Position numbers and translations under genes: made by a program. Below are positions 8,187 through 27,345 of a stretch of DNA of 64,000 nucleotides, piece by piece (the stretch's first letter is position 1; each line of letters begins with the position of its first letter). Under the pieces are notes generated by a model. That model was not told the origin of the DNA and did not search any database. It worked only from the letters and a program-made list of their open reading frames with translations. Source of the stretch: Catellatospora vulcania (lineage in GTDB: Bacteria > Actinomycetota > Actinomycetes > Mycobacteriales > Micromonosporaceae); assembly GCF_009720385.1 (NCBI RefSeq), contig NZ_WARX01000001.1, positions 124,001 to 188,000 on the forward strand. The letters are read 5' to 3'.

Positions 8187-8843
8187 TCAGGCTAGGACGA
8201 TGGTGGCGGTTGCCAGCATGCCTGCGAGGACCACCAGGCCGATGGCGCCGGGGTCGAGGCGGGCGCCGAACCAGCGGTCGGCGAGGTCGCGGGCGGGGAG
8301 CAGGCCGGACAGCGGGGCGGCGAGCAGGACCAGCCAGCCGGCCAGCAGGCCGGCGGGGCCGTGGGACTGCAGGAGTGCCGAGACCAGGGTGACTACGGCC
8401 GAGCAGGCCGCGCCGAGGGCGAACAGCAGAGGCAGGATCAGCGGGGGGAGCTTCTCGCCGCCGCGCCGGGCCCGGTCGATCCGGGCGGCGGCGCTCTCCA
8501 TCAGCGCGATCGGGTCGGTGACCGTGGCGGCGGGCTGCTCGGGCATCGGCAGCGGCGGCGGCACGGGGCCCAGGCGGCGGCCGCGGCGGCCGCGTACCTC
8601 CTTCAGCTCGTCCCACAGGGCGCCCGACGCGAGGTCGGTCTGCGCGACGAGGCGCTGCGCGTGGGCCATCCGGGCGGTCGCCGCGACCACGGCGTCGTCG
8701 GCCGCGGCGAGGTCGTGCTCGATGGTGGCGATGCCGTCCGCATGGGACTGCACGGCCGCGGTCAGCGCCGTCTCGTGCCGCCGGGACGCGGCGACCAGGT
8801 CGGCGATCAGCGCGCGGTAGCGGACCGTCGGCGGGGAGGTCAC
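8187..8843 (-). CDS. Coiled-coil membrane protein, last gene of FtsK-like operon
   Basis: I do not recognise this 218-residue protein. The first ~95 residues are helical and charged (RYRALIADLVAASRR, DDAVVAATARMAHAQRL). They are followed by a Pro-rich linker and three hydrophobic segments at about 145-170, 175-195 and 200-218. That makes a membrane protein with a long cytoplasmic coiled coil. GTG at 8843 overlaps the stop of the ATPase gene by 4 nt (GTGA), so it belongs to the same operon and is translationally coupled. It may be the membrane anchor or channel partner of the ATPase; this is inference. Confidence 0.8.
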   Translation of the reverse strand: MTSPPTVRYRALIADLVAASRRHETALTAAVQSHADGIATIEHDLAAADDAVVAATARMAHAQRLVAQTDLASGALWDELKEVRGRRGRRLGPVPPPLPMPEQPAATVTDPIALMESAAARIDRARRGGEKLPPLILPLLFALGAACSAVVTLVSALLQSHGPAGLLAGWLVLLAAPLSGLLPARDLADRWFGARLDPGAIGLVVLAGMLATATIVLA

Positions 8844-11563
8844 GGGGCCACCTCGTACGGGATGATGAGCTGCGCGCGGTGGTGCACCGCACGGTCGAAG
8901 TGCAGGGCCCGGTTGAGCCGGGGGAACCAGGGCGGGCCGCCGGGCTGCGGATACAGCGCGGAGAGCTCGGGTCCGTGCACGTCGAGCGCCACCCACGCGC
9001 CGATCGTGTCGAAGCGGGCGCCGGGGCCGCCGAGGTCGTCGCGCAGCCGGGCGACCGTGCGCCACCAGCCCAGCACGTGGGTGCGCCGCTCGGGGCCGCG
9101 CGCCAGCACGGTGCGCAGCAGCTCGTGGCCGCTGGGCAGGCCCGGTCCGGGTTTGGCGGCCAGGCGGGCGGCGACCGCGTCCAGGGCGAAGGCGAACACG
9201 TAGTGCGGGGTGTCGGCGACCTCGGCGTCGGGCCGCTCCGCGGCGAGTTCGGCCAGCAGGCCGGTGATGCCGTCGGCGTCGTACCAGTCGCAGCGGTGGC
9301 GGGTGTCGAGCACCGCGTGCAGCGACTTGGCGGCGGTAGTCGCGTCGGAGTCCAGGCACAGCACGCTGAACCGGGCCGAACCGGAGGTGTGCTGGCTGCC
9401 CAGGGCGTGCCCGGCGGCCAGCAGCACCGCGCAGGCCTCGTCGGCCCGGGTGCCGAGCACGGCGAGGTTGCGGCCGGGCGCGCGGTTGAGCCGCAGCGTG
9501 GCCGGGCGGCCGGTCACGTCGATGGTCTCGCCGAGCAGGGCCACCGCGCCCACCGCGGCGGGCAGCTCCGGCGCGGGCGGCGGCGGCAGCAGCGGGAACA
9601 GCGGGCGGGCGTCGCCGTCGAACAGCCGCGGCGGCTCAGCTCCGTCGGGTCGCGCCGACCACAGCTGTTCCTGCAGCCCGAGCCAGGTCGCGCGGTCGCC
9701 GGCGTCGGGCAGCCGCACGATGGTGTTCGCCGACGGCACGCCCGAGTCGGCGTTGACCACGGCGTGGCAGCGCGGGATCAGCTCGGCGGCCAGGTTCACA
9801 TCCGACAGGATGCGCCGTGCCTTGGGCAGCGCGATGCGCAGCGTGAACTGCGAGACCAGGCCCGAACGGCCCCACAGCGCCTCGATGCCGGACACGTCCT
9901 GGCTGGCCAGCACCAGGTGGATGCCCTGCGAGCGGCCCCGGCGGGCCAGGTCCTCCAGCAGGTCCACGGCCTCGCTGGTCACCGCGTCGCGCGCACCCAG
10001 CAGCACCTGGAACTCGTCGATGACGGCGACGATGCGCGGCCAGTCGCCCGCCGGGTCCTCGGCCCGCAGCTCGGCGAGCTTGGTCGCCTCGTGCTGCTTG
10101 GCGGCGGCGGCCCGGCGCTTGAGCTCCTCGGCCAGGTGCCGCAGCAGGGCCAGGCCGAACTCCCGGTCGCTGTTGACGTTGACGCCGACCAGCCGCACCT
10201 GCGGCAGCCAGCTCGGGTCGCGGGTGCCGGGGGCGAAGCGGGCGAAGGACACGCCCTCCTTGAAGTCCAGCAGGTACAGCGACAGCTCGCCGGGGGAGTA
10301 GCGGGTGGCCAGCGCGGCCAGCCAGCAGTAGATCAGGTTGGTCTTGCCGGAGCCGGACGGGCCGCCGATCAGCGCGTGCGGCGGGTCGTCGCCGAGCACC
10401 AGCTCCACCAGCCGCCCGTCGGTGCCCTCGCCGATGGGCGCGCGCAGCGCCTCGGCCGAGGACTGCTGCCAGATCTCGTCGGGCAGCAGGGCCGCGAACG
10501 GCACCGGCGGCGGCCCGGCGGTGGCCTGCTCGGCCAGCGCCCGGCAGACCCCGGTGACCAGGGCAGCCCCCGGCGGGGCGTCCAGGCGCACCGGGATCTC
10601 GCCGGTGAGGCTGGTCCGGGCGGTGCCGCCCGCCCGGAGTGCGATCGTCTCGACGTCGGCGTCACCGGCGAGCTCGAAACCACGGCTGATCAGGTGTACG
10701 CCGGCCGCGACGCCAGTGCGGGCCACCCGGTCGAGCTGGGCGCGCTCGGCTTTGGACAGCTCCGCCCCGTTCGGGTCGGCCAGCAGCACCGCCACCCGCC
10801 ACGGCTCGGGGCGGCGGCCGGTCTCCGCGGCCAGCTCGGCGACGCTCAGGTAGACCCCGCCGAGCACGTTCTCGTTGATGCGGCGGATCTGCTCGGCGAG
10901 GTCGTCGAGCAGCGGGGCGAGCCCGCCCGGCCCGAGATACGAGATGAGCCCGGCCGGGGCCAGCGGAGCGAGCCCCGCCAGCGCGCCGCCGAGGCGGCCC
11001 GGGTCGTACACGCTGATCCGCAGCGAACCGGGCGGCACCGACGCCAGTGCACGCAGCAGCATCGCCCCGATCAGGGCGTCCACGGCGGCCGCGCCGTCGC
11101 CGGACACGTGCAGGTGCGCGTTGTCCAGCAGCGGGACCAGGGCCGGGACGGGCGTGGCCGGGGCCGGTTCCTGCACCAGCGAGCCGACGCGCAGCAGCCC
11201 GGGGGTGAGCCCGGCCTGCGGCTCCGGCTTCATCCCGGGTCGCCACGCCGTCCACGGGCTGCCCGCGGTGCCGGGCGCGGCCGCCTCGGCGAGCCCGAGC
11301 AGCCCCCGGCCGAGCTTGGCGGTCTCCCGCTCGCGGCGGGCACGGGCCTCGGCCAGCGCGGTGTCCCGGGTCGCCAGCAGTTCGTCGCGCCGTTTCGGGG
11401 CCGAGCGCCGGACGGCGTCGAGCTGCGCGAGCGCCGCGACCCGGGCCGCCGCGGTGGCGGCCAGCGAGGCGCGGGCGGCGTGCCGGGCCGCGGCAAGTTC
11501 CCTGCGTACCGCCGCGACGATCCCTCGGCTGGTCGGCGCAGTCGCGGCGTCCTGTTCAGCCAC
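8840..11563 (-). CDS. FtsK/SpoIIIE-type ATPase, possibly with degenerate flanking domains
   Basis: The 907-residue protein has an Ala-rich helical N-terminus (1-100). A first region (about 125-390) reads like an FtsK fold but lacks Walker A (HVSGDGAAAVD). The central ATPase is intact: GGPSGSGKT ending at about 408, LYLLDFKEGVSF, and Walker B VAVIDEF at about 512-518, then LASQDVSG. A third region (about 660-860) starts NLAVLGTRADEA, a broken P-loop. A chain of FtsK-like domains with one competent site recalls EccC of type VII secretion. It has no FtsK N-terminal membrane helices and no gamma domain, so it is not the chromosome translocase. Partners are a small helical protein, a 335-residue protein and a membrane protein. 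Confidence 0.85.
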   Translation of the reverse strand: MAEQDAATAPTSRGIVAAVRRELAAARHAARASLAATAAARVAALAQLDAVRRSAPKRRDELLATRDTALAEARARRERETAKLGRGLLGLAEAAAPGTAGSPWTAWRPGMKPEPQAGLTPGLLRVGSLVQEPAPATPVPALVPLLDNAHLHVSGDGAAAVDALIGAMLLRALASVPPGSLRISVYDPGRLGGALAGLAPLAPAGLISYLGPGGLAPLLDDLAEQIRRINENVLGGVYLSVAELAAETGRRPEPWRVAVLLADPNGAELSKAERAQLDRVARTGVAAGVHLISRGFELAGDADVETIALRAGGTARTSLTGEIPVRLDAPPGAALVTGVCRALAEQATAGPPPVPFAALLPDEIWQQSSAEALRAPIGEGTDGRLVELVLGDDPPHALIGGPSGSGKTNLIYCWLAALATRYSPGELSLYLLDFKEGVSFARFAPGTRDPSWLPQVRLVGVNVNSDREFGLALLRHLAEELKRRAAAAKQHEATKLAELRAEDPAGDWPRIVAVIDEFQVLLGARDAVTSEAVDLLEDLARRGRSQGIHLVLASQDVSGIEALWGRSGLVSQFTLRIALPKARRILSDVNLAAELIPRCHAVVNADSGVPSANTIVRLPDAGDRATWLGLQEQLWSARPDGAEPPRLFDGDARPLFPLLPPPPAPELPAAVGAVALLGETIDVTGRPATLRLNRAPGRNLAVLGTRADEACAVLLAAGHALGSQHTSGSARFSVLCLDSDATTAAKSLHAVLDTRHRCDWYDADGITGLLAELAAERPDAEVADTPHYVFAFALDAVAARLAAKPGPGLPSGHELLRTVLARGPERRTHVLGWWRTVARLRDDLGGPGARFDTIGAWVALDVHGPELSALYPQPGGPPWFPRLNRALHFDRAVHHRAQLIIPYEVAP

Positions 11564-12563
11564 CGCTGCGGCGGCGCGTGGACTGCGTGACGCGGCCCAG
11601 CTCGTCGACGGCGGAGCGGCGGCGGCCGCTGTCGGTGATGCGCAGCGCTGCCCGGTGGGCCTCGGCCCGCTCGGTGGCCCGCTGCTGCGCGGCTCCGGCG
11701 GCGGCCCGTTCGGCCTCGATGATCTGGTTCAGCTCGTCGGCCGGCCGGCCGTTGGCCCGCAGCAGCGCGGCGACCAGCAGCGCGGCAGCGGTGGCGGCGT
11801 CCACCGGGTGGGTGGGCGGCCGGTCGGCGGTGCGCTGGGGCGAGGTGTGGCAGACCCGCGCCACGATCTCCTCGGCCGCCTGGGCGGGCAGCTGCGGCAG
11901 CAGTTCCGCGGGTAGCGGCAGGCCCGCCCGGCGTACCCGGGCCAGGTCCTCCAGCCGCGGCGGGTAGCCGACCAGGTCGGCGGCGAGGTGGCGCAGCAGC
12001 GGCGGCGCGATCGCGGCCAGGCCCAGGCCGACGGCGGGTCCCGCCGCGGCCAGGTGCCGGTGCAGCCGCCTGCGGTCGCCGTCGTGGGCCGCCTGCACAC
12101 AGCGGCGCAGCAGCTCGGCGCTGGACTGCGCGGCGTCGGCGCGGTCCCCGGTGAGCGTGGACGCGGAGAAGGCTTCGCCGGTCAGCGCGGCGATCCGCTC
12201 GCCCCACCAGTCGGCCAGCCGGCAGTCGCCGGAGCCGGTGACCTCGCCGCGCGGGGCCTGGGCGGGCACGACGGCCTGCCACCCCTCGTCGTGGCGGGCG
12301 TGGGCGTCGGCGGGCATGCCCAGTGCCAGCGCGTACTCGTCGAGCCGGTCCTGGGCGACGCGCAGCGCGGCGGCGGCGTGGTCCAGGCGCTCGACGGCGC
12401 GGCTCAGGTCGGGCACGCTGATCGGGGTCGCGCTGTGGTGCAGCACCCAGGCCAGCAGCCCGGTGGCGCTGCGCAGGCGCTCGGCGGCCGCGGAGACCTG
12501 CGGCAGGGGCAGCTCCTCGCGGGCGACGCGCAGCTGGTCGGCAAGATCTTGTACAAGGCTCAT
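11556..12563 (-). CDS. Hypothetical helical protein of the FtsK-like operon
   Basis: I do not recognise this 335-residue protein. It is almost wholly alpha-helical with no signal peptide or membrane segment. The N-terminal ~100 residues (MSLVQDLADQLRVAREEL and the next helices) form a coiled-coil-like bundle. The middle holds DCRLADWWGERIAALTGEAF, and the C-terminus is long, charged and Arg/Ala-rich (ERAAAGAAQQRATERAEAH). Its 3' end overlaps the ATPase start by 8 nt, and the small 86-residue gene ends 7 nt upstream of it. Position suggests an adaptor or regulatory subunit. Confidence 0.78.
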   Translation of the reverse strand: MSLVQDLADQLRVAREELPLPQVSAAAERLRSATGLLAWVLHHSATPISVPDLSRAVERLDHAAAALRVAQDRLDEYALALGMPADAHARHDEGWQAVVPAQAPRGEVTGSGDCRLADWWGERIAALTGEAFSASTLTGDRADAAQSSAELLRRCVQAAHDGDRRRLHRHLAAAGPAVGLGLAAIAPPLLRHLAADLVGYPPRLEDLARVRRAGLPLPAELLPQLPAQAAEEIVARVCHTSPQRTADRPPTHPVDAATAAALLVAALLRANGRPADELNQIIEAERAAAGAAQQRATERAEAHRAALRITDSGRRRSAVDELGRVTQSTRRRSGG

Positions 12564-12570
12564 CGGGCGC

Positions 12571-12831
12571 TCACAGCGTCGCGACGTACGACTCGGCCTG
12601 CTCCACCGCGTGCAGCGTCGCGGTGAGGCACTCCTCGAGTTCCGAGGCGGCCTGGGCGAGTGCGGCCTGCGCGGCGGTCACGGCCTCGTGGCCGGACCCC
12701 TCGACCGCGGTGGCGAGGCTGAGCTGCGCCTCGCCGAGCCGGTCGTTGGCGGAACGGACCGCGTCCTGGCCTTCCTGCACATGCAGCATGGCGGCATCGA
12801 TGGCGGCTTTGACCTCGGCGACGCTGGCCAC
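12571..12831 (-). CDS. Small two-helix protein, first gene of FtsK-like operon
   Basis: This 86-residue protein starts at GTG 12831 with GGAGG 4 nt upstream. The sequence is two long amphipathic helices broken near the middle (VEGSGHEAVT), rich in Ala, Glu and Gln, with one Cys (EECL). Size and helix-turn-helix hairpin shape match the WXG100 class of type VII substrates. The turn lacks the WxG motif and the end lacks YxxxD/E. It leads an operon with a FtsK/EccC-like ATPase, as WXG100 genes often do. Substrate, chaperone or structural subunit are all possible. Confidence 0.72.
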   Translation of the reverse strand: MASVAEVKAAIDAAMLHVQEGQDAVRSANDRLGEAQLSLATAVEGSGHEAVTAAQAALAQAASELEECLTATLHAVEQAESYVATL

Positions 12832-24723: not shown

Positions 24724-26034
24724 CTAGCGGTTGGGCGCTCCGGCGTCGCTGCGTCCGTCGAGGCTGATGGTGGGCTCGTTGCCGGCCAGCATGATGGTGG
24801 GCTCGTCCCCGCTCTGCGACTCGGCCGGCCGGGTCGCCTGCGGCTGATCGGGCTGCGGCTGCGCGGGTGCGGGCTGCGCCGGTGCGGCTGCCGGGGCGGC
24901 CGGTGCGGCCGGGCTGGGCGGCGCAGGCAGCGTCACGGCCTGGGTCGGCTCATCGGCGGGAGCCGGGTCGGCAGAGCGCTGTGCCTCGGCCCGGCGGCGC
25001 TCGGCCGCCTCAGCCTCGCGCTGCGCCTTGGCCAGTCGCTCCAGCTCGACGTGCAGCTGCTGCTTCAGCTCGGCCAGCCGGTGCTCGACCTGCGTGATGT
25101 CGGCCCGCATCGCCACCAGGCGGGTCTGGCCGTCCTCGTACTGCTGCTTGGCGGTGTCCGCGGCGGCCTGCTCGGCGGCCGCCCGCCCGCGGGCGAGCGC
25201 CACCTCCTGCTCGGCCTGGTCGGTGCGCTGGGACGCCTGGGTCTCCACCTCGGCCAGCTTCTGCTGGACGGTGGCGGTCGCGGCGGCGATCCGCTGCTCA
25301 GCCTCGGCGGACGCCGCGGCCAGCCGCTGCTCGGCTTCCGCGGCGGCCGCCGCGAGCTGCTGCTCGGCCTGGGCGCGGCTGTCGGCCGCGTGCTGCTCGG
25401 TCGCGGCGCGCGCGGCGGCGATCTCCTTGTCGGCCTGGATGCGTCGGGAGGCGGCCTCCTGTGCCGCGGCGGTGCGTACGCCCTGCGCCTCGACCTGGGC
25501 GTGCGCGAGCAGTTCGCGGGCCTCGGTGCGCAGGCGCTGCGTCTCGTTCATCAGGTCGACGCGGTGCTGCTCCTCGGCCTTGCGCTCCTCGGCCCGCCGG
25601 GAGGCCAGGGCGAGATCGAAGTCGCGGGAGGCGGTGGCGGCGCGCTCACGGGCGTCGGCGAGCAGGCGCTCCGCTTCGGACCGCTGGTCGGCGATCTCCT
25701 GGGCGGCGCCGTTGCGCAGGTCGTCGGCCTGGTCCTCGGCCAGCGAGAGGATCTGCTCCACGCGCGCGCCGAGGTGCCGGAAGGAGACGCGGGACGGCAC
25801 CGCGCGGCGGGCGGCGTCGGCGAGCTCCAGCTGGAGCTGCTGCACCTGGCCGGCCAGGGCCTGCAGTTGCGAGATGGCCTGGTCCCGTTCGGCGGCCAGG
25901 GTCGCCAGTTCGGATTCGACCTGGACGACGTATCGGTTCACCTGTTTCTTGTCGAAGCCCTTGAGGGACGTATCGAAGCTGGGTTCCGATGAGACGCCCT
26001 CACCGAGCGCGAACAGGTCTCCGCCGTGCGACAT
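24724..26034 (-). CDS. DivIVA-like coiled-coil protein (second paralogue)
   Basis: The 436-residue protein has an N-terminal DivIVA-like module (FDTSLKGFDKKQVNRYVVQVE) and a second conserved block (FRHLGARVEQILSLAEDQAD). About 250 residues of continuous Ala/Glu/Gln coiled coil follow, with repeats such as AEAEQRLAAASAEAEQRI. A disordered Pro/Ala tail ends in two similar motifs (EPTIMLAGNEPTISL). Proteins like this (Scy/FilP/DivIVA group) scaffold polar growth. ATG 26034 is taken; 26043 is possible. A hairpin ends about 24 nt upstream. Confidence 0.82.
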   Translation of the reverse strand: MSHGGDLFALGEGVSSEPSFDTSLKGFDKKQVNRYVVQVESELATLAAERDQAISQLQALAGQVQQLQLELADAARRAVPSRVSFRHLGARVEQILSLAEDQADDLRNGAAQEIADQRSEAERLLADARERAATASRDFDLALASRRAEERKAEEQHRVDLMNETQRLRTEARELLAHAQVEAQGVRTAAAQEAASRRIQADKEIAAARAATEQHAADSRAQAEQQLAAAAAEAEQRLAAASAEAEQRIAAATATVQQKLAEVETQASQRTDQAEQEVALARGRAAAEQAAADTAKQQYEDGQTRLVAMRADITQVEHRLAELKQQLHVELERLAKAQREAEAAERRRAEAQRSADPAPADEPTQAVTLPAPPSPAAPAAPAAAPAQPAPAQPQPDQPQATRPAESQSGDEPTIMLAGNEPTISLDGRSDAGAPNR

Positions 26035-26057
26035 GCGGTCCATCTTCACATAAAGAG

Positions 26058-26093
26058 TCACGCCGCGCCCGACAGGTGCCGGGCGCGGCGTGA
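26058..26093 (-). terminator. Hairpin between the two coiled-coil genes
   Basis: Perfect 14-nt arms (26058-26071, 26080-26093; core CGCCGCGCCCG) with an 8-nt loop lie just past the first gene's stop and 24 nt before the second gene's start. It may terminate the first gene partially or act as an attenuator. Confidence 0.65.
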
Positions 26094-26112: not shown

Positions 26113-27345
26113 TTATTCGGCCTTTTCCGCCTTGGGCTTCTCCTCGGCCGCCGGGGCGGGCGCGGGGTTGCCGACGCCGGGCACGATGCCGGCCAGGCCG
26201 GACAGCATCTGGCCGAGCTGCGCGGTGACCGCGTTCTTCTGGCGGGTGAGGTCGTCGACCTCGCGACGGGCGGCCGTGGTGGTCAGCTCGGCCTCGTTGC
26301 GGGCCTCGGTCACCAGGCGGTGCGCCTCGGCCTTGGCCTCGTTGACGTTCTTCTCGGCGGCGACGCGGGCCTTCTCGGTCGTCTCGGTCGCGGTGCGCTC
26401 GGACTCGACCCGGCGCGCCTCGGCGCGCTGCTCGATCTCCTTGGCCCGGTCCTCGGCGGCGCGGGCGCGCTCCTCGGCCTCGCCGACCAGCTTCTGCGTG
26501 GCGGCCACGGCGGAGGAGTGGCGCTGCGACTCCTCGCGCTCGGACTTCTCGCGGCGCTCGGCCAGCTCCAGCTGCAGGGCCTGCAGGTCCTTGTCGCGCT
26601 TGTCGCGGGCGTCGGCCAGCATCTTGGAGGCCTCGGCGCGCTTCTCCTCCGCCTCGCGGGCGGCCTTGGCGCGCAGCTGGGTGATCTCCCGCTCGGCGGT
26701 GGCGCGCAGCGTCGCGACCTCGCGCTCGACGGTGGCCTTGAGCTCGGCCACCTCGTGCGAGGTGGCAGTGCGCAGCTGCTTGGTCTCGCGGTCGGCGTCG
26801 GCGCGCAGCGTGTCGGCCTCGCGGCGGGCCTGCACCCGGACCTCGGCGGCCTCGCGCTCGGCGGCGGTGCGCAGGTTGCCGGCCTCGCGCTCGGCGGTCG
26901 CCTTCATGGCGGCGGCCTCGGCACGCGCCTTGTCGGTGATCTCGCGGGCCTCGAGGCGGGCCGCGGACAGGATGCCCTCGGACTCGCGCTTGGACTCGCC
27001 GCGGTGGTCGTTGGCCTGCTCCTCGGCGAGGCGCAGGATCTGCTCCACGCGGGTGCCGAGGCCGGACAGGGTGGGGCGGCTGTTCTCTTCCAGCTGCTTG
27101 CTCGTGTCGGTCAGCTTCTGCTCGACCGAGTTGAGCCGCTGCTCAGCCTGGCGCAGACGACGCTGGGCGTCGTTCATGCGCTGCTCGGCCTCCCCGCGTG
27201 CCTGCTCCGACTGGGCAAGCTGAGCGTTCAGGCGACCGACAAACGCGTTTACCTGCTCGCGGTCGAAACCGCGCAGGACGACTGTGAAGTCTTGTTGGGT
27301 ATTCGCGCCATCGAAGAACGCGACGGAGGAGGGCTGCTGGGACAT
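26113..27345 (-). CDS. DivIVA-like coiled-coil protein (first paralogue)
   Basis: The 410-residue protein shares its plan with the downstream gene: an N-terminal DivIVA-type segment (DFTVVLRGFDREQVNAFV), the block LGTRVEQILRLAEEQAN at about 95-112, then roughly 250 residues of heptad-rich coiled coil. It has a short Pro/Ala/Glu tail and lacks the EPTI motifs. It is cytoplasmic with no membrane segment. A scaffold at the growing pole or septum is likely by analogy with Scy and FilP of Streptomyces. ATG 27345 gives MSQQPSSVAFF. Confidence 0.83.
   Translation of the reverse strand: MSQQPSSVAFFDGANTQQDFTVVLRGFDREQVNAFVGRLNAQLAQSEQARGEAEQRMNDAQRRLRQAEQRLNSVEQKLTDTSKQLEENSRPTLSGLGTRVEQILRLAEEQANDHRGESKRESEGILSAARLEAREITDKARAEAAAMKATAEREAGNLRTAAEREAAEVRVQARREADTLRADADRETKQLRTATSHEVAELKATVEREVATLRATAEREITQLRAKAAREAEEKRAEASKMLADARDKRDKDLQALQLELAERREKSEREESQRHSSAVAATQKLVGEAEERARAAEDRAKEIEQRAEARRVESERTATETTEKARVAAEKNVNEAKAEAHRLVTEARNEAELTTTAARREVDDLTRQKNAVTAQLGQMLSGLAGIVPGVGNPAPAPAAEEKPKAEKAE

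What the first reader, a model, noticed from the sequence alone, without database searches (positions are those of the whole stretch)
8187..12831. Four-gene operon around an EccC/FtsK-like ATPase, possibly an undescribed secretion or DNA-handling system
Genes of 86, 335, 907 and 218 residues are translationally coupled or near-abutting on the minus strand. The first is a two-helix protein of WXG100 size without the WxG motif. The ATPase shows one intact FtsK-like site (GGPSGSGKT, VIDEF) with degenerate P-loop-like regions before and after. The last is a coiled-coil protein with three membrane helices. The set resembles a minimal type VII-like machine, but EccB, EccD, EccE and mycosin are missing. 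I know no named system with this exact set.
Basis: partly seen in the sequence, partly recalled or inferred. Interest (0 to 1): 0.72.

Follow-up and report, generated by a model that had tools for sequence, protein, structure and literature searches.

The report
Minimal type VII-like ATPase operon
A four-gene set in a soil actinobacterium looks like a stripped-down relative of the type VII protein secretion machine whose motor seems to borrow its membrane anchor from the next gene; the general kind has been described before, while this actinobacterial version was not found in the papers searched.

Summary
The four genes are real, at the stated coordinates and in order, and recur in 10 of 10 other same-genus genomes. 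The ATPase (E <= 1e-60) is in 51 of 61 family genomes sampled, own included. It is modelled with three RecA-like domains; only the middle one keeps Walker A and B, in 36 of 36 aligned sequences. Foldseek's first eight matches are type VII EccC/EssC. The 86-aa protein resembles WXG100 hairpins with W lost and G kept. The 335-aa protein's N-terminus resembles the 86-aa protein. The 218-aa protein is a coiled coil with three predicted membrane helices; an ORF with predicted membrane helix follows the ATPase in 150 of 154 related loci. Papers of 2012 and 2024 already describe WXG partners with a three-domain, one-active-site ATPase (PMC3482391, PMC11090510). Not found there: an inherited actinobacterial version, its membrane partner, and the hairpin-fused 335-aa protein. 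Best reading: a type VII-like translocase anchored in trans. Transport is inferred, not shown; many related ATPase loci lack the 86-aa gene. New variant of a known kind.

The parts
12571..12831 (-). C86: 86-aa WXG100-like helical-hairpin protein without the W
   Evidence: Pfam WXG100 E 0.0021, 18.7 bits, below the 27.3-bit cut-off; 13 of 21 family members hit WXG100 at E <= 1, best 5e-5; profile's top PDB sequence hit is ESAT-6, E 4e-4, gapless over 72 residues; hhalign with 8 WXG100-type proteins score 27.5, shuffle maximum 20.9 of 80
12697..12705 (-). turn V43-E44-G45 of C86, in register with WxG
   Evidence: alignment printed; G45 invariant in 21 aligned members
12574..12588 (-). C-terminal Y82-V-A-T-L86 of C86
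   Evidence: Y82 invariant in 21 of 21, L86 in at least 90%; some further copies found later differ
11556..12563 (-). B335: C86-like hairpin (residues 1-85) fused to an all-helical region
   Evidence: hhalign with C86 E 8.8e-5; controls; model mean pLDDT 79.2, all helical; no Pfam family, no PDB fold match at E <= 0.001
8840..11563 (-). A907: three-domain EccC/EssC-like ATPase with one intact site
   Evidence: FtsK_SpoIIIE 2.1e-18; EccCa 5.8e-29 but 101 bits against a cut-off of 509; model; Foldseek
11279..11530 (-). N-terminal long helix of A907 (residues 12-95)
   Evidence: model
10583..11197 (-). domain 1 of A907 (residues 123-327), P-loop lost
9713..10447 (-). domain 2 of A907 (residues 373-617), active site intact; weakest part of the model
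10340..10363 (-). Walker A, residues 401-408
   Evidence: G404, G406, K407, T408 in 36 of 36
10010..10024 (-). Walker B VIDEF, residues 514-518
   Evidence: D, E, F in 36 of 36
9062..9547 (-). domain 3 of A907 (residues 673-834), P-loop lost
8187..8843 (-). D218: coiled coil plus three predicted membrane helices, proposed anchor
   Evidence: peaks at 136, 164, 200; of 72 orthologues 64 show three segments and 8 show two; membrane-helix ORF after the ATPase in 150 of 154 loci

Best explanation
The operon encodes a minimal, type VII-like translocase. A907 acts as an EccC/EssC-like motor in which only the middle RecA domain burns ATP and the two dead domains regulate it and dock its clients. A907 has no clear membrane helix of its own; D218 supplies the anchor in trans, through coiled-coil contact with the N-terminal helix of A907. 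C86, a W-less WXG100-like hairpin, and the hairpin domain of B335 are the handled proteins or adaptors, probably as a pair like EsxA/EsxB, recognised through their C-terminal Y-x3-L/I helix ends, perhaps by domain 3. Shown: the gene set and its conservation, the modelled domain architecture, the active-site pattern, the membrane-helix neighbour, the profile similarities. Inferred: hexamer, trans anchoring, hairpin pairing, docking on domain 3, and movement of protein into or across the membrane.
For: Three modelled alpha/beta domains, only the middle site intact in 36 of 36. Foldseek ranks 1-8 are EccC/EssC, best E 9.1e-22, first FtsK 1.0e-7. C86: ESAT-6 is the top PDB sequence hit; WXG100 comparison beats 80 of 80 shuffles. 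B335 N-terminus against C86: score 30.8, above 120 of 120 shuffles (maximum 17.7), the reversed alignment and three other regions of the operon. Membrane-helix ORF directly after the ATPase in 150 of 154 loci. In 74 loci, a C86-like hit lies near 34 of 62 ATPases with domain 3 matched and near 1 of 12 without, Fisher p 0.0036. Protein-folding machines as neighbours: a Clp-type gene near the set in 40 of 80 named loci (Pfam of one such gene); Hsp70, DnaJ-TPR and GrpE before the ATPase on a Rhodococcus plasmid.
Against: C86 is not universal: 28 of 62 loci with domain 3 matched have no C86-like hit, and gene tables of 14 of these show a D-type gene but, by eye, no C86-like gene, so C86 may be an accessory. 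The domain 3 association ignores ancestry: 5 of the 12 loci without it are same-genus orthologues (L045, L059, L060, L204, L205), three of the 12 (L158-L160) are long proteins whose domain 3 may merely be unmatched, and the C86 hit of L252 falls on what reads as a B335 frame and that of L233 lacks the motifs. C86 misses the Pfam and NCBIfam cut-offs and the W; unrelated coiled-coil proteins score not far behind ESAT-6 (dynactin, E 0.003), and in single members other helical families score as well. With another WXG100 alignment C86 gave only 5.7% probability, and WXG100 against the B335 N-terminus gave nothing (score 10.6). Model confidence is moderate (mean pLDDT 72.4, pTM 0.48), and Foldseek TM-scores are low (at most 0.37 for the first eight), so the domain packing is not matched. 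One hydrophobic stretch of A907 (residues 158-176, mean 1.76) passes a lax threshold, though it is a domain 1 helix in the model. No secretion data exist.
Confidence: 0.5

Rival explanations
1. A membrane-associated ATPase and scaffold that remodels or positions envelope or septal proteins; C86 and B335 are structural subunits and nothing leaves the cell.
For: The ATPase-D pair is the constant part and often lacks C86; broad presence in one family, much of it syntenic; DivIVA-like frames, by eye, beside two copies (L212, L235). SmeA-SffA of Streptomyces is a recalled analogy (only a search listing seen).
Against: First fold matches are secretion ATPases; the hairpin resembles WXG100 proteins.
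Confidence: 0.25
2. An anti-phage or anti-plasmid defence module in which the ATPase senses or pumps foreign DNA.
For: PADLOC profiles mad8 (1.1e-16) and SspH (4.3e-16) hit the ATPase domain; relatives sit beside TerY-P, CARF or TerD genes in L040 and L042.
Against: Those hits cover the FtsK-like domain shared by many families; the nearest flanking genes are housekeeping; the set is syntenic across the genus; no nuclease was recognised among the four proteins by Pfam.
Confidence: 0.1
3. A DNA translocase for conjugation, chromosome or spore DNA segregation, tethered by D218.
For: FtsK_SpoIIIE Pfam domain 2.1e-18; FtsK and TcpA motors appear lower in the fold list.
Against: FtsK DNA translocase model only E 0.034, 11.8 of 1566 bits; EccC/EssC ranked first with three domains.
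Confidence: 0.1

Closest known systems
Solo WXG proteins with a distinct YueA-like ATPase (PMC3482391, Table 1 note 6; passage seen)
   Same: Three FtsK/HerA domains with only the middle active; small WXG-type partner
   Different: [quoted passage not shown] here actinobacterial, syntenic, with a membrane partner gene
[quoted passage not shown]
   Same: Central domain alone active, N-terminal coiled coil in place of membrane helices, WXG100-type proteins one of which lacks WxG; ATPase of L040, which resembles such a locus, aligns with A907 (30% over 560 columns, E 2e-41)
   Different: No vWA, kinase, phosphatase, CARF or McrBC-like gene among the nearest neighbours here; a three-helix membrane protein is added
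WXG100 and FtsK as a minimal type VII set in Helicobacter pylori (PMC4978471, passages seen)
   Same: WxG plus FtsK-like pair
   Different: Other phylum; no B335 or D218 mentioned in the passages seen
T7SSa (ESX) and T7SSb-j (PMC11217815, abstract, outline and passages seen)
   Same: EccC/EssC-like ATPase and a WXG100-like protein
   Different: Those ATPases are membrane-bound and have further membrane subunits; A907 lacks clear membrane helices

Membership tests
Three-domain, one-active-site YueA/EssC-like ATPase with WXG partner | Three FtsK/HerA-like domains, only the middle active | tested here: met
   (middle site in 36 of 36; domains 1 and 3 as modelled)
Three-domain, one-active-site YueA/EssC-like ATPase with WXG partner | N-terminal coiled coil, no membrane helices in the ATPase | tested here: met
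   helix 12-95; 79 of 79 orthologues without a segment of hydropathy >= 1.9; one window stretch at 1.76 inside domain 1
Three-domain, one-active-site YueA/EssC-like ATPase with WXG partner | Mobile distribution | tested here: not met
   syntenic in 10 of 10 other same-genus loci; 51 of 61 family genomes
WXG100 | Curated family score | tested here: not met
   18.7 of 27.3 bits in Pfam, 15.3 of 44.85 in NCBIfam
WXG100 | W-x-G turn | tested here: not met
   V-E-G in C86; one relative, L176, reads W-D-G; G45 invariant in 21 of 21
WXG100 | Profile similarity of the whole hairpin | tested here: met
   weaker with another set
WXG100 | C-terminal HxxxD/ExxhxxxH (PMC3935865) | tested here: inconclusive
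   by eye: the acidic residue is not conserved, a Y-x3-L end is
T7SSa (ESX) | Membrane-bound EccC with EccB, EccD, EccE and mycosin | tested here: not met
   no clear membrane helix in A907; EccCa score 101 of 509 bits; nearest three flanking genes are not T7SS; other window genes not scanned
Type VII secretion in general | Secretion of the hairpin protein | not testable with these tools
   needs an experiment
CoCoNuT Type III-A | CnuB/CnuC and TerY-P neighbours | tested here: not met
   nearest flanking genes are mutase, DUF4126 and NucS
FtsK DNA translocase | Full-length FtsK model | tested here: not met
   NF007615 E 0.034, 11.8 of 1566 bits

The most novel reading that the evidence does not exclude
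A separate, vertically inherited actinobacterial type of type VII-like secretion: a cytosolic EccC-like motor with one active domain, anchored in trans by a dedicated three-helix coiled-coil membrane protein, exporting a W-less hairpin together with a hairpin-fused partner through a C-terminal Y-x3-L signal.
Probability: 0.3. Interest if true: 0.78.

Novelty: new variant of a known kind. Interest (0 to 1): 0.52.

Why it matters
The 2024 description of the relatives left a puzzle: an EssC-like ATPase with WXG partners but no membrane helices, so that 'a different mechanism appears likely' (PMC11090510). The actinobacterial loci offer a concrete, testable answer, a membrane partner gene directly after the ATPase in 150 of 154 loci examined. 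They place such a system in most sampled genomes of Micromonosporaceae, and give a four-gene set small enough to rebuild when asking what the least is that type VII-like transport needs.

Tried and rejected
DNA translocase: the FtsK translocase model is weak and EccC/EssC rank first in the fold search. Defence island: no defence gene among the nearest flanking genes, set syntenic in the genus. C86 as a universal partner: rejected, many ATPase-D pairs lack a C86-like hit. First WXG100 alignment against C86: 5.7% probability; a second set including three WXG100-type proteins of this genome gave 53.7%, so this result depends on the set. WXG100 against the B335 N-terminus: nothing. B335 in Pfam: no family for the window protein, scattered weak hits for a few of 36 members; in PDB folds nothing at E <= 0.001. 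Actinoplanes-type loci at the NucS position lack C86 and B335 nearby; in L073, L079 and L140 the ORF in between reads, by eye, as an unrelated membrane protein. C86 is still encoded elsewhere in 8 of 8 such genomes tested, and the 6 of these fetched carry a full C86-B-A-D set there. Promoters, terminators and RNAs were not examined.

Errors of mine: a script failed on a name pattern (redone). In some searches a name match took a wrong record for the window, so the gene calls and the window lines are void; they were redone. The other counts do not use that record.
Full report
Setting. The window is G000:C1:124001-188000 of an 8.8 Mb genome in 36 contigs. Among named loci the nearest are Catellatospora species, with 94-96% identity over the ATPase in the three closest; that the window is a Catellatospora is my inference. 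The four genes fill 8187-12831 on the minus strand, between a methylmalonyl-CoA mutase gene and a DUF4126 gene followed by NucS.

Conservation. In 21 relatives searched, own genome included, 21 have some hit, but that includes ordinary FtsK-like proteins; the orthologue itself (83-96% identity, in two pieces in G002 and G007) is in 10 of 10 other same-genus genomes, and 10 of 10 of those loci show the four genes in order. In a sample of the family, 51 of 61 genomes (own included) and 36 of 44 genera have an ATPase match at E <= 1e-60, often more than one copy. In a sample of the class it is 10 of 60, own included, at E <= 1e-30. Around these 80 my gene caller found all four genes in 47, C86-B-A in 7, C86-A-D in 2, B-A-D in 1, A-D in 21, A alone in 1, no ATPase in 1; three of the incomplete ones that I inspected (L086, L090, L124) owe a gap to the caller, and others lie at contig ends. 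dN/dS in three within-genus comparisons is 0.02-0.07 for C86, 0.22-0.33 for B335, 0.14-0.32 for A907 and 0.34-0.47 for D218.

The ATPase. The AlphaFold2 model (36 sequences, mean pLDDT 72.4, pTM 0.48) shows a long N-terminal helix and three alpha/beta domains, with good confidence in most of domains 1 and 3 and poor to moderate confidence in domain 2. The middle domain keeps the Walker A G-x-G-K-T and Walker B D-E-F in 36 of 36. At the matching places of domains 1 and 3 no lysine is among the five commonest residues of any printed column; domain 3 has a conserved G-T-R-x-x-E-A-C instead. Foldseek's first eight matches are EccC/EssC cytoplasmic domains, best E 9.1e-22 over 960 columns; their TM-scores are low (0.20-0.37), so domains match but not their packing. 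By profile the protein hits EccCa with 101 bits, far under the curated 509. One middle active domain between two dead ones is what PMC11090510 (section 10) and a table note of PMC3482391 describe for minimal, WXG-linked ATPases elsewhere.

The small hairpin. The C86 family profile (21 sequences) has ESAT-6 as its top match among 177,635 PDB sequences, gapless over 72 residues, E 4e-4; coiled-coil proteins follow (dynactin, E 0.003), so the score alone is modest. Of 21 members 13 hit Pfam WXG100 at E <= 1, best 5e-5; DUF6244 and Trypco1 hit 10 each, and single members hit other helical families as well. Against eight WXG100-type proteins, three of them of this genome, the score is 27.5; 80 block shuffles reach at most 20.9 and the reversed family 15.6. 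A different set of seven gave 5.7% probability. In the alignment the motif W falls on V43 and the motif G on G45, which is invariant, as is Y82 (21 of 21); more distant copies found later do not all keep the tyrosine.

The third gene. Residues 1-80 of B335 match the C86 family end to end: E 8.8e-5, score 30.8 for residues 1-90, against maxima of 12.0 (60 column shuffles) and 17.7 (60 block shuffles), 13.8 reversed, and 8.4-12.6 for the rest of B335 and the coiled coils of A907 and D218. The conserved tyrosines are in register. WXG100 proteins directly against this region gave nothing. The rest of B335 is modelled all-helical, with no match in PDB folds. I take C86 and B335 as a possible hairpin pair.

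The membrane partner. Of 79 ATPase orthologues none has a stretch of hydropathy >= 1.9; in A907 one stretch in domain 1 reaches 1.76. In 154 loci (the 80 named ones and 74 others), 150 have an ORF with at least one predicted membrane helix in its last 60% starting at the end of the ATPase gene; the exceptions are two contig ends (L067, L114) and two doubtful picks (L123, L236). The loci are related, so this is not 154 events, and the plasmid loci L040, L041, L042, L044 and the locus L161 were not in that count. In L044 a coiled-coil gene with one predicted membrane helix lies before the ATPase. In L040 and L041 I saw no such gene by eye, so the partner may be a feature of some lineages only.

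Wider set. In L155, L156, L157 and L160, from two other families, the order is ATPase, membrane coiled coil, 85- or 87-aa hairpin, without a B335 (families). On the Rhodococcus plasmid L039, Hsp70, DnaJ-TPR and GrpE genes precede the ATPase. A Clp-type gene lies near the set in 40 of 80 named loci. The second copy of this genome (C3) ends after domain 2 and has no C86-like hit nearby. Over 74 loci a C86-like hit lies near 34 of 62 ATPases with domain 3 matched and 1 of 12 without (Fisher p 0.0036). I read this as weak support for domain 3 as docking site: five of the 12 are same-genus orthologues, L158-L160 are long proteins with perhaps an unmatched domain 3, and the hits in L252 and L233 are doubtful. 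Against it, 28 of 62 have domain 3 and no hit. The ATPase with its membrane partner is the core; C86 and B335 are additions.

Literature. Searches showed no description of this actinobacterial set. Only open-licence papers are held; the 2012 Ter paper cited by two of those seen is not held under the id I tried. Micromonospora lupini has genes listed as eccC and FtsK/SpoIIIE-like in a table (PMC4182475, passages seen); I did not map them to this set.

Verdict. New variant of a known kind. The gene set, its conservation and the active-site pattern are firm; the domain models and profile links are moderate; transport is inferred.

Noticed in passing
L045:7032-9651 (G000:C3, own genome): Second ATPase and D-type pair; the ATPase ends after domain 2. 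Nearby are genes that read as ftsH- and folE-like and a gene with an AAA_10 domain.
   Followed up: partly
L039:3469-12086: Rhodococcus pseudokoreensis plasmid: Hsp70, DnaJ-TPR, GrpE, ATPase, membrane coiled coil, 86-aa hairpin, then a 272-aa protein that by eye looks like a hairpin joined to a toxin-like domain (no Pfam hit).
   Followed up: partly
L207:7676-8275, L208:8111-8713, L208:8794-9384, L047:7084-7719: Recurring accessory family of about 200 aa starting with an I-P-V-G-x-x-L-G-P-like stretch beside ATPase-D pairs (by eye); no Pfam hit for the L047 member.
   Followed up: no
L207:8346-9788, L228:7084-8583: Frames that by eye read as Ser/Thr kinases close after the ATPase-D pair.
   Followed up: no
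L048, L237, L256, L257, L258: ATPase copies in which my patterns found neither Walker A nor Walker B; perhaps dead paralogues.
   Followed up: no
window 24724-26061 and 26113-27345: Two neighbouring minus-strand genes with DivIVA-like beginnings (by eye; not searched).
   Followed up: no
L040:3901-16726: Caballeronia plasmid locus with vWA, WXG100, FtsK-like ATPase, CARF, second vWA, PP2C, kinase and AAA genes, resembling the extended Type III-A CoCoNuT operons of PMC11090510.
   Followed up: partly
L047:3785-5789: Next to a third copy in G011: a YbaB-family gene and a 434-aa protein with a weak WXG100_2 hit (E 0.0012, below cut-off).
   Followed up: no
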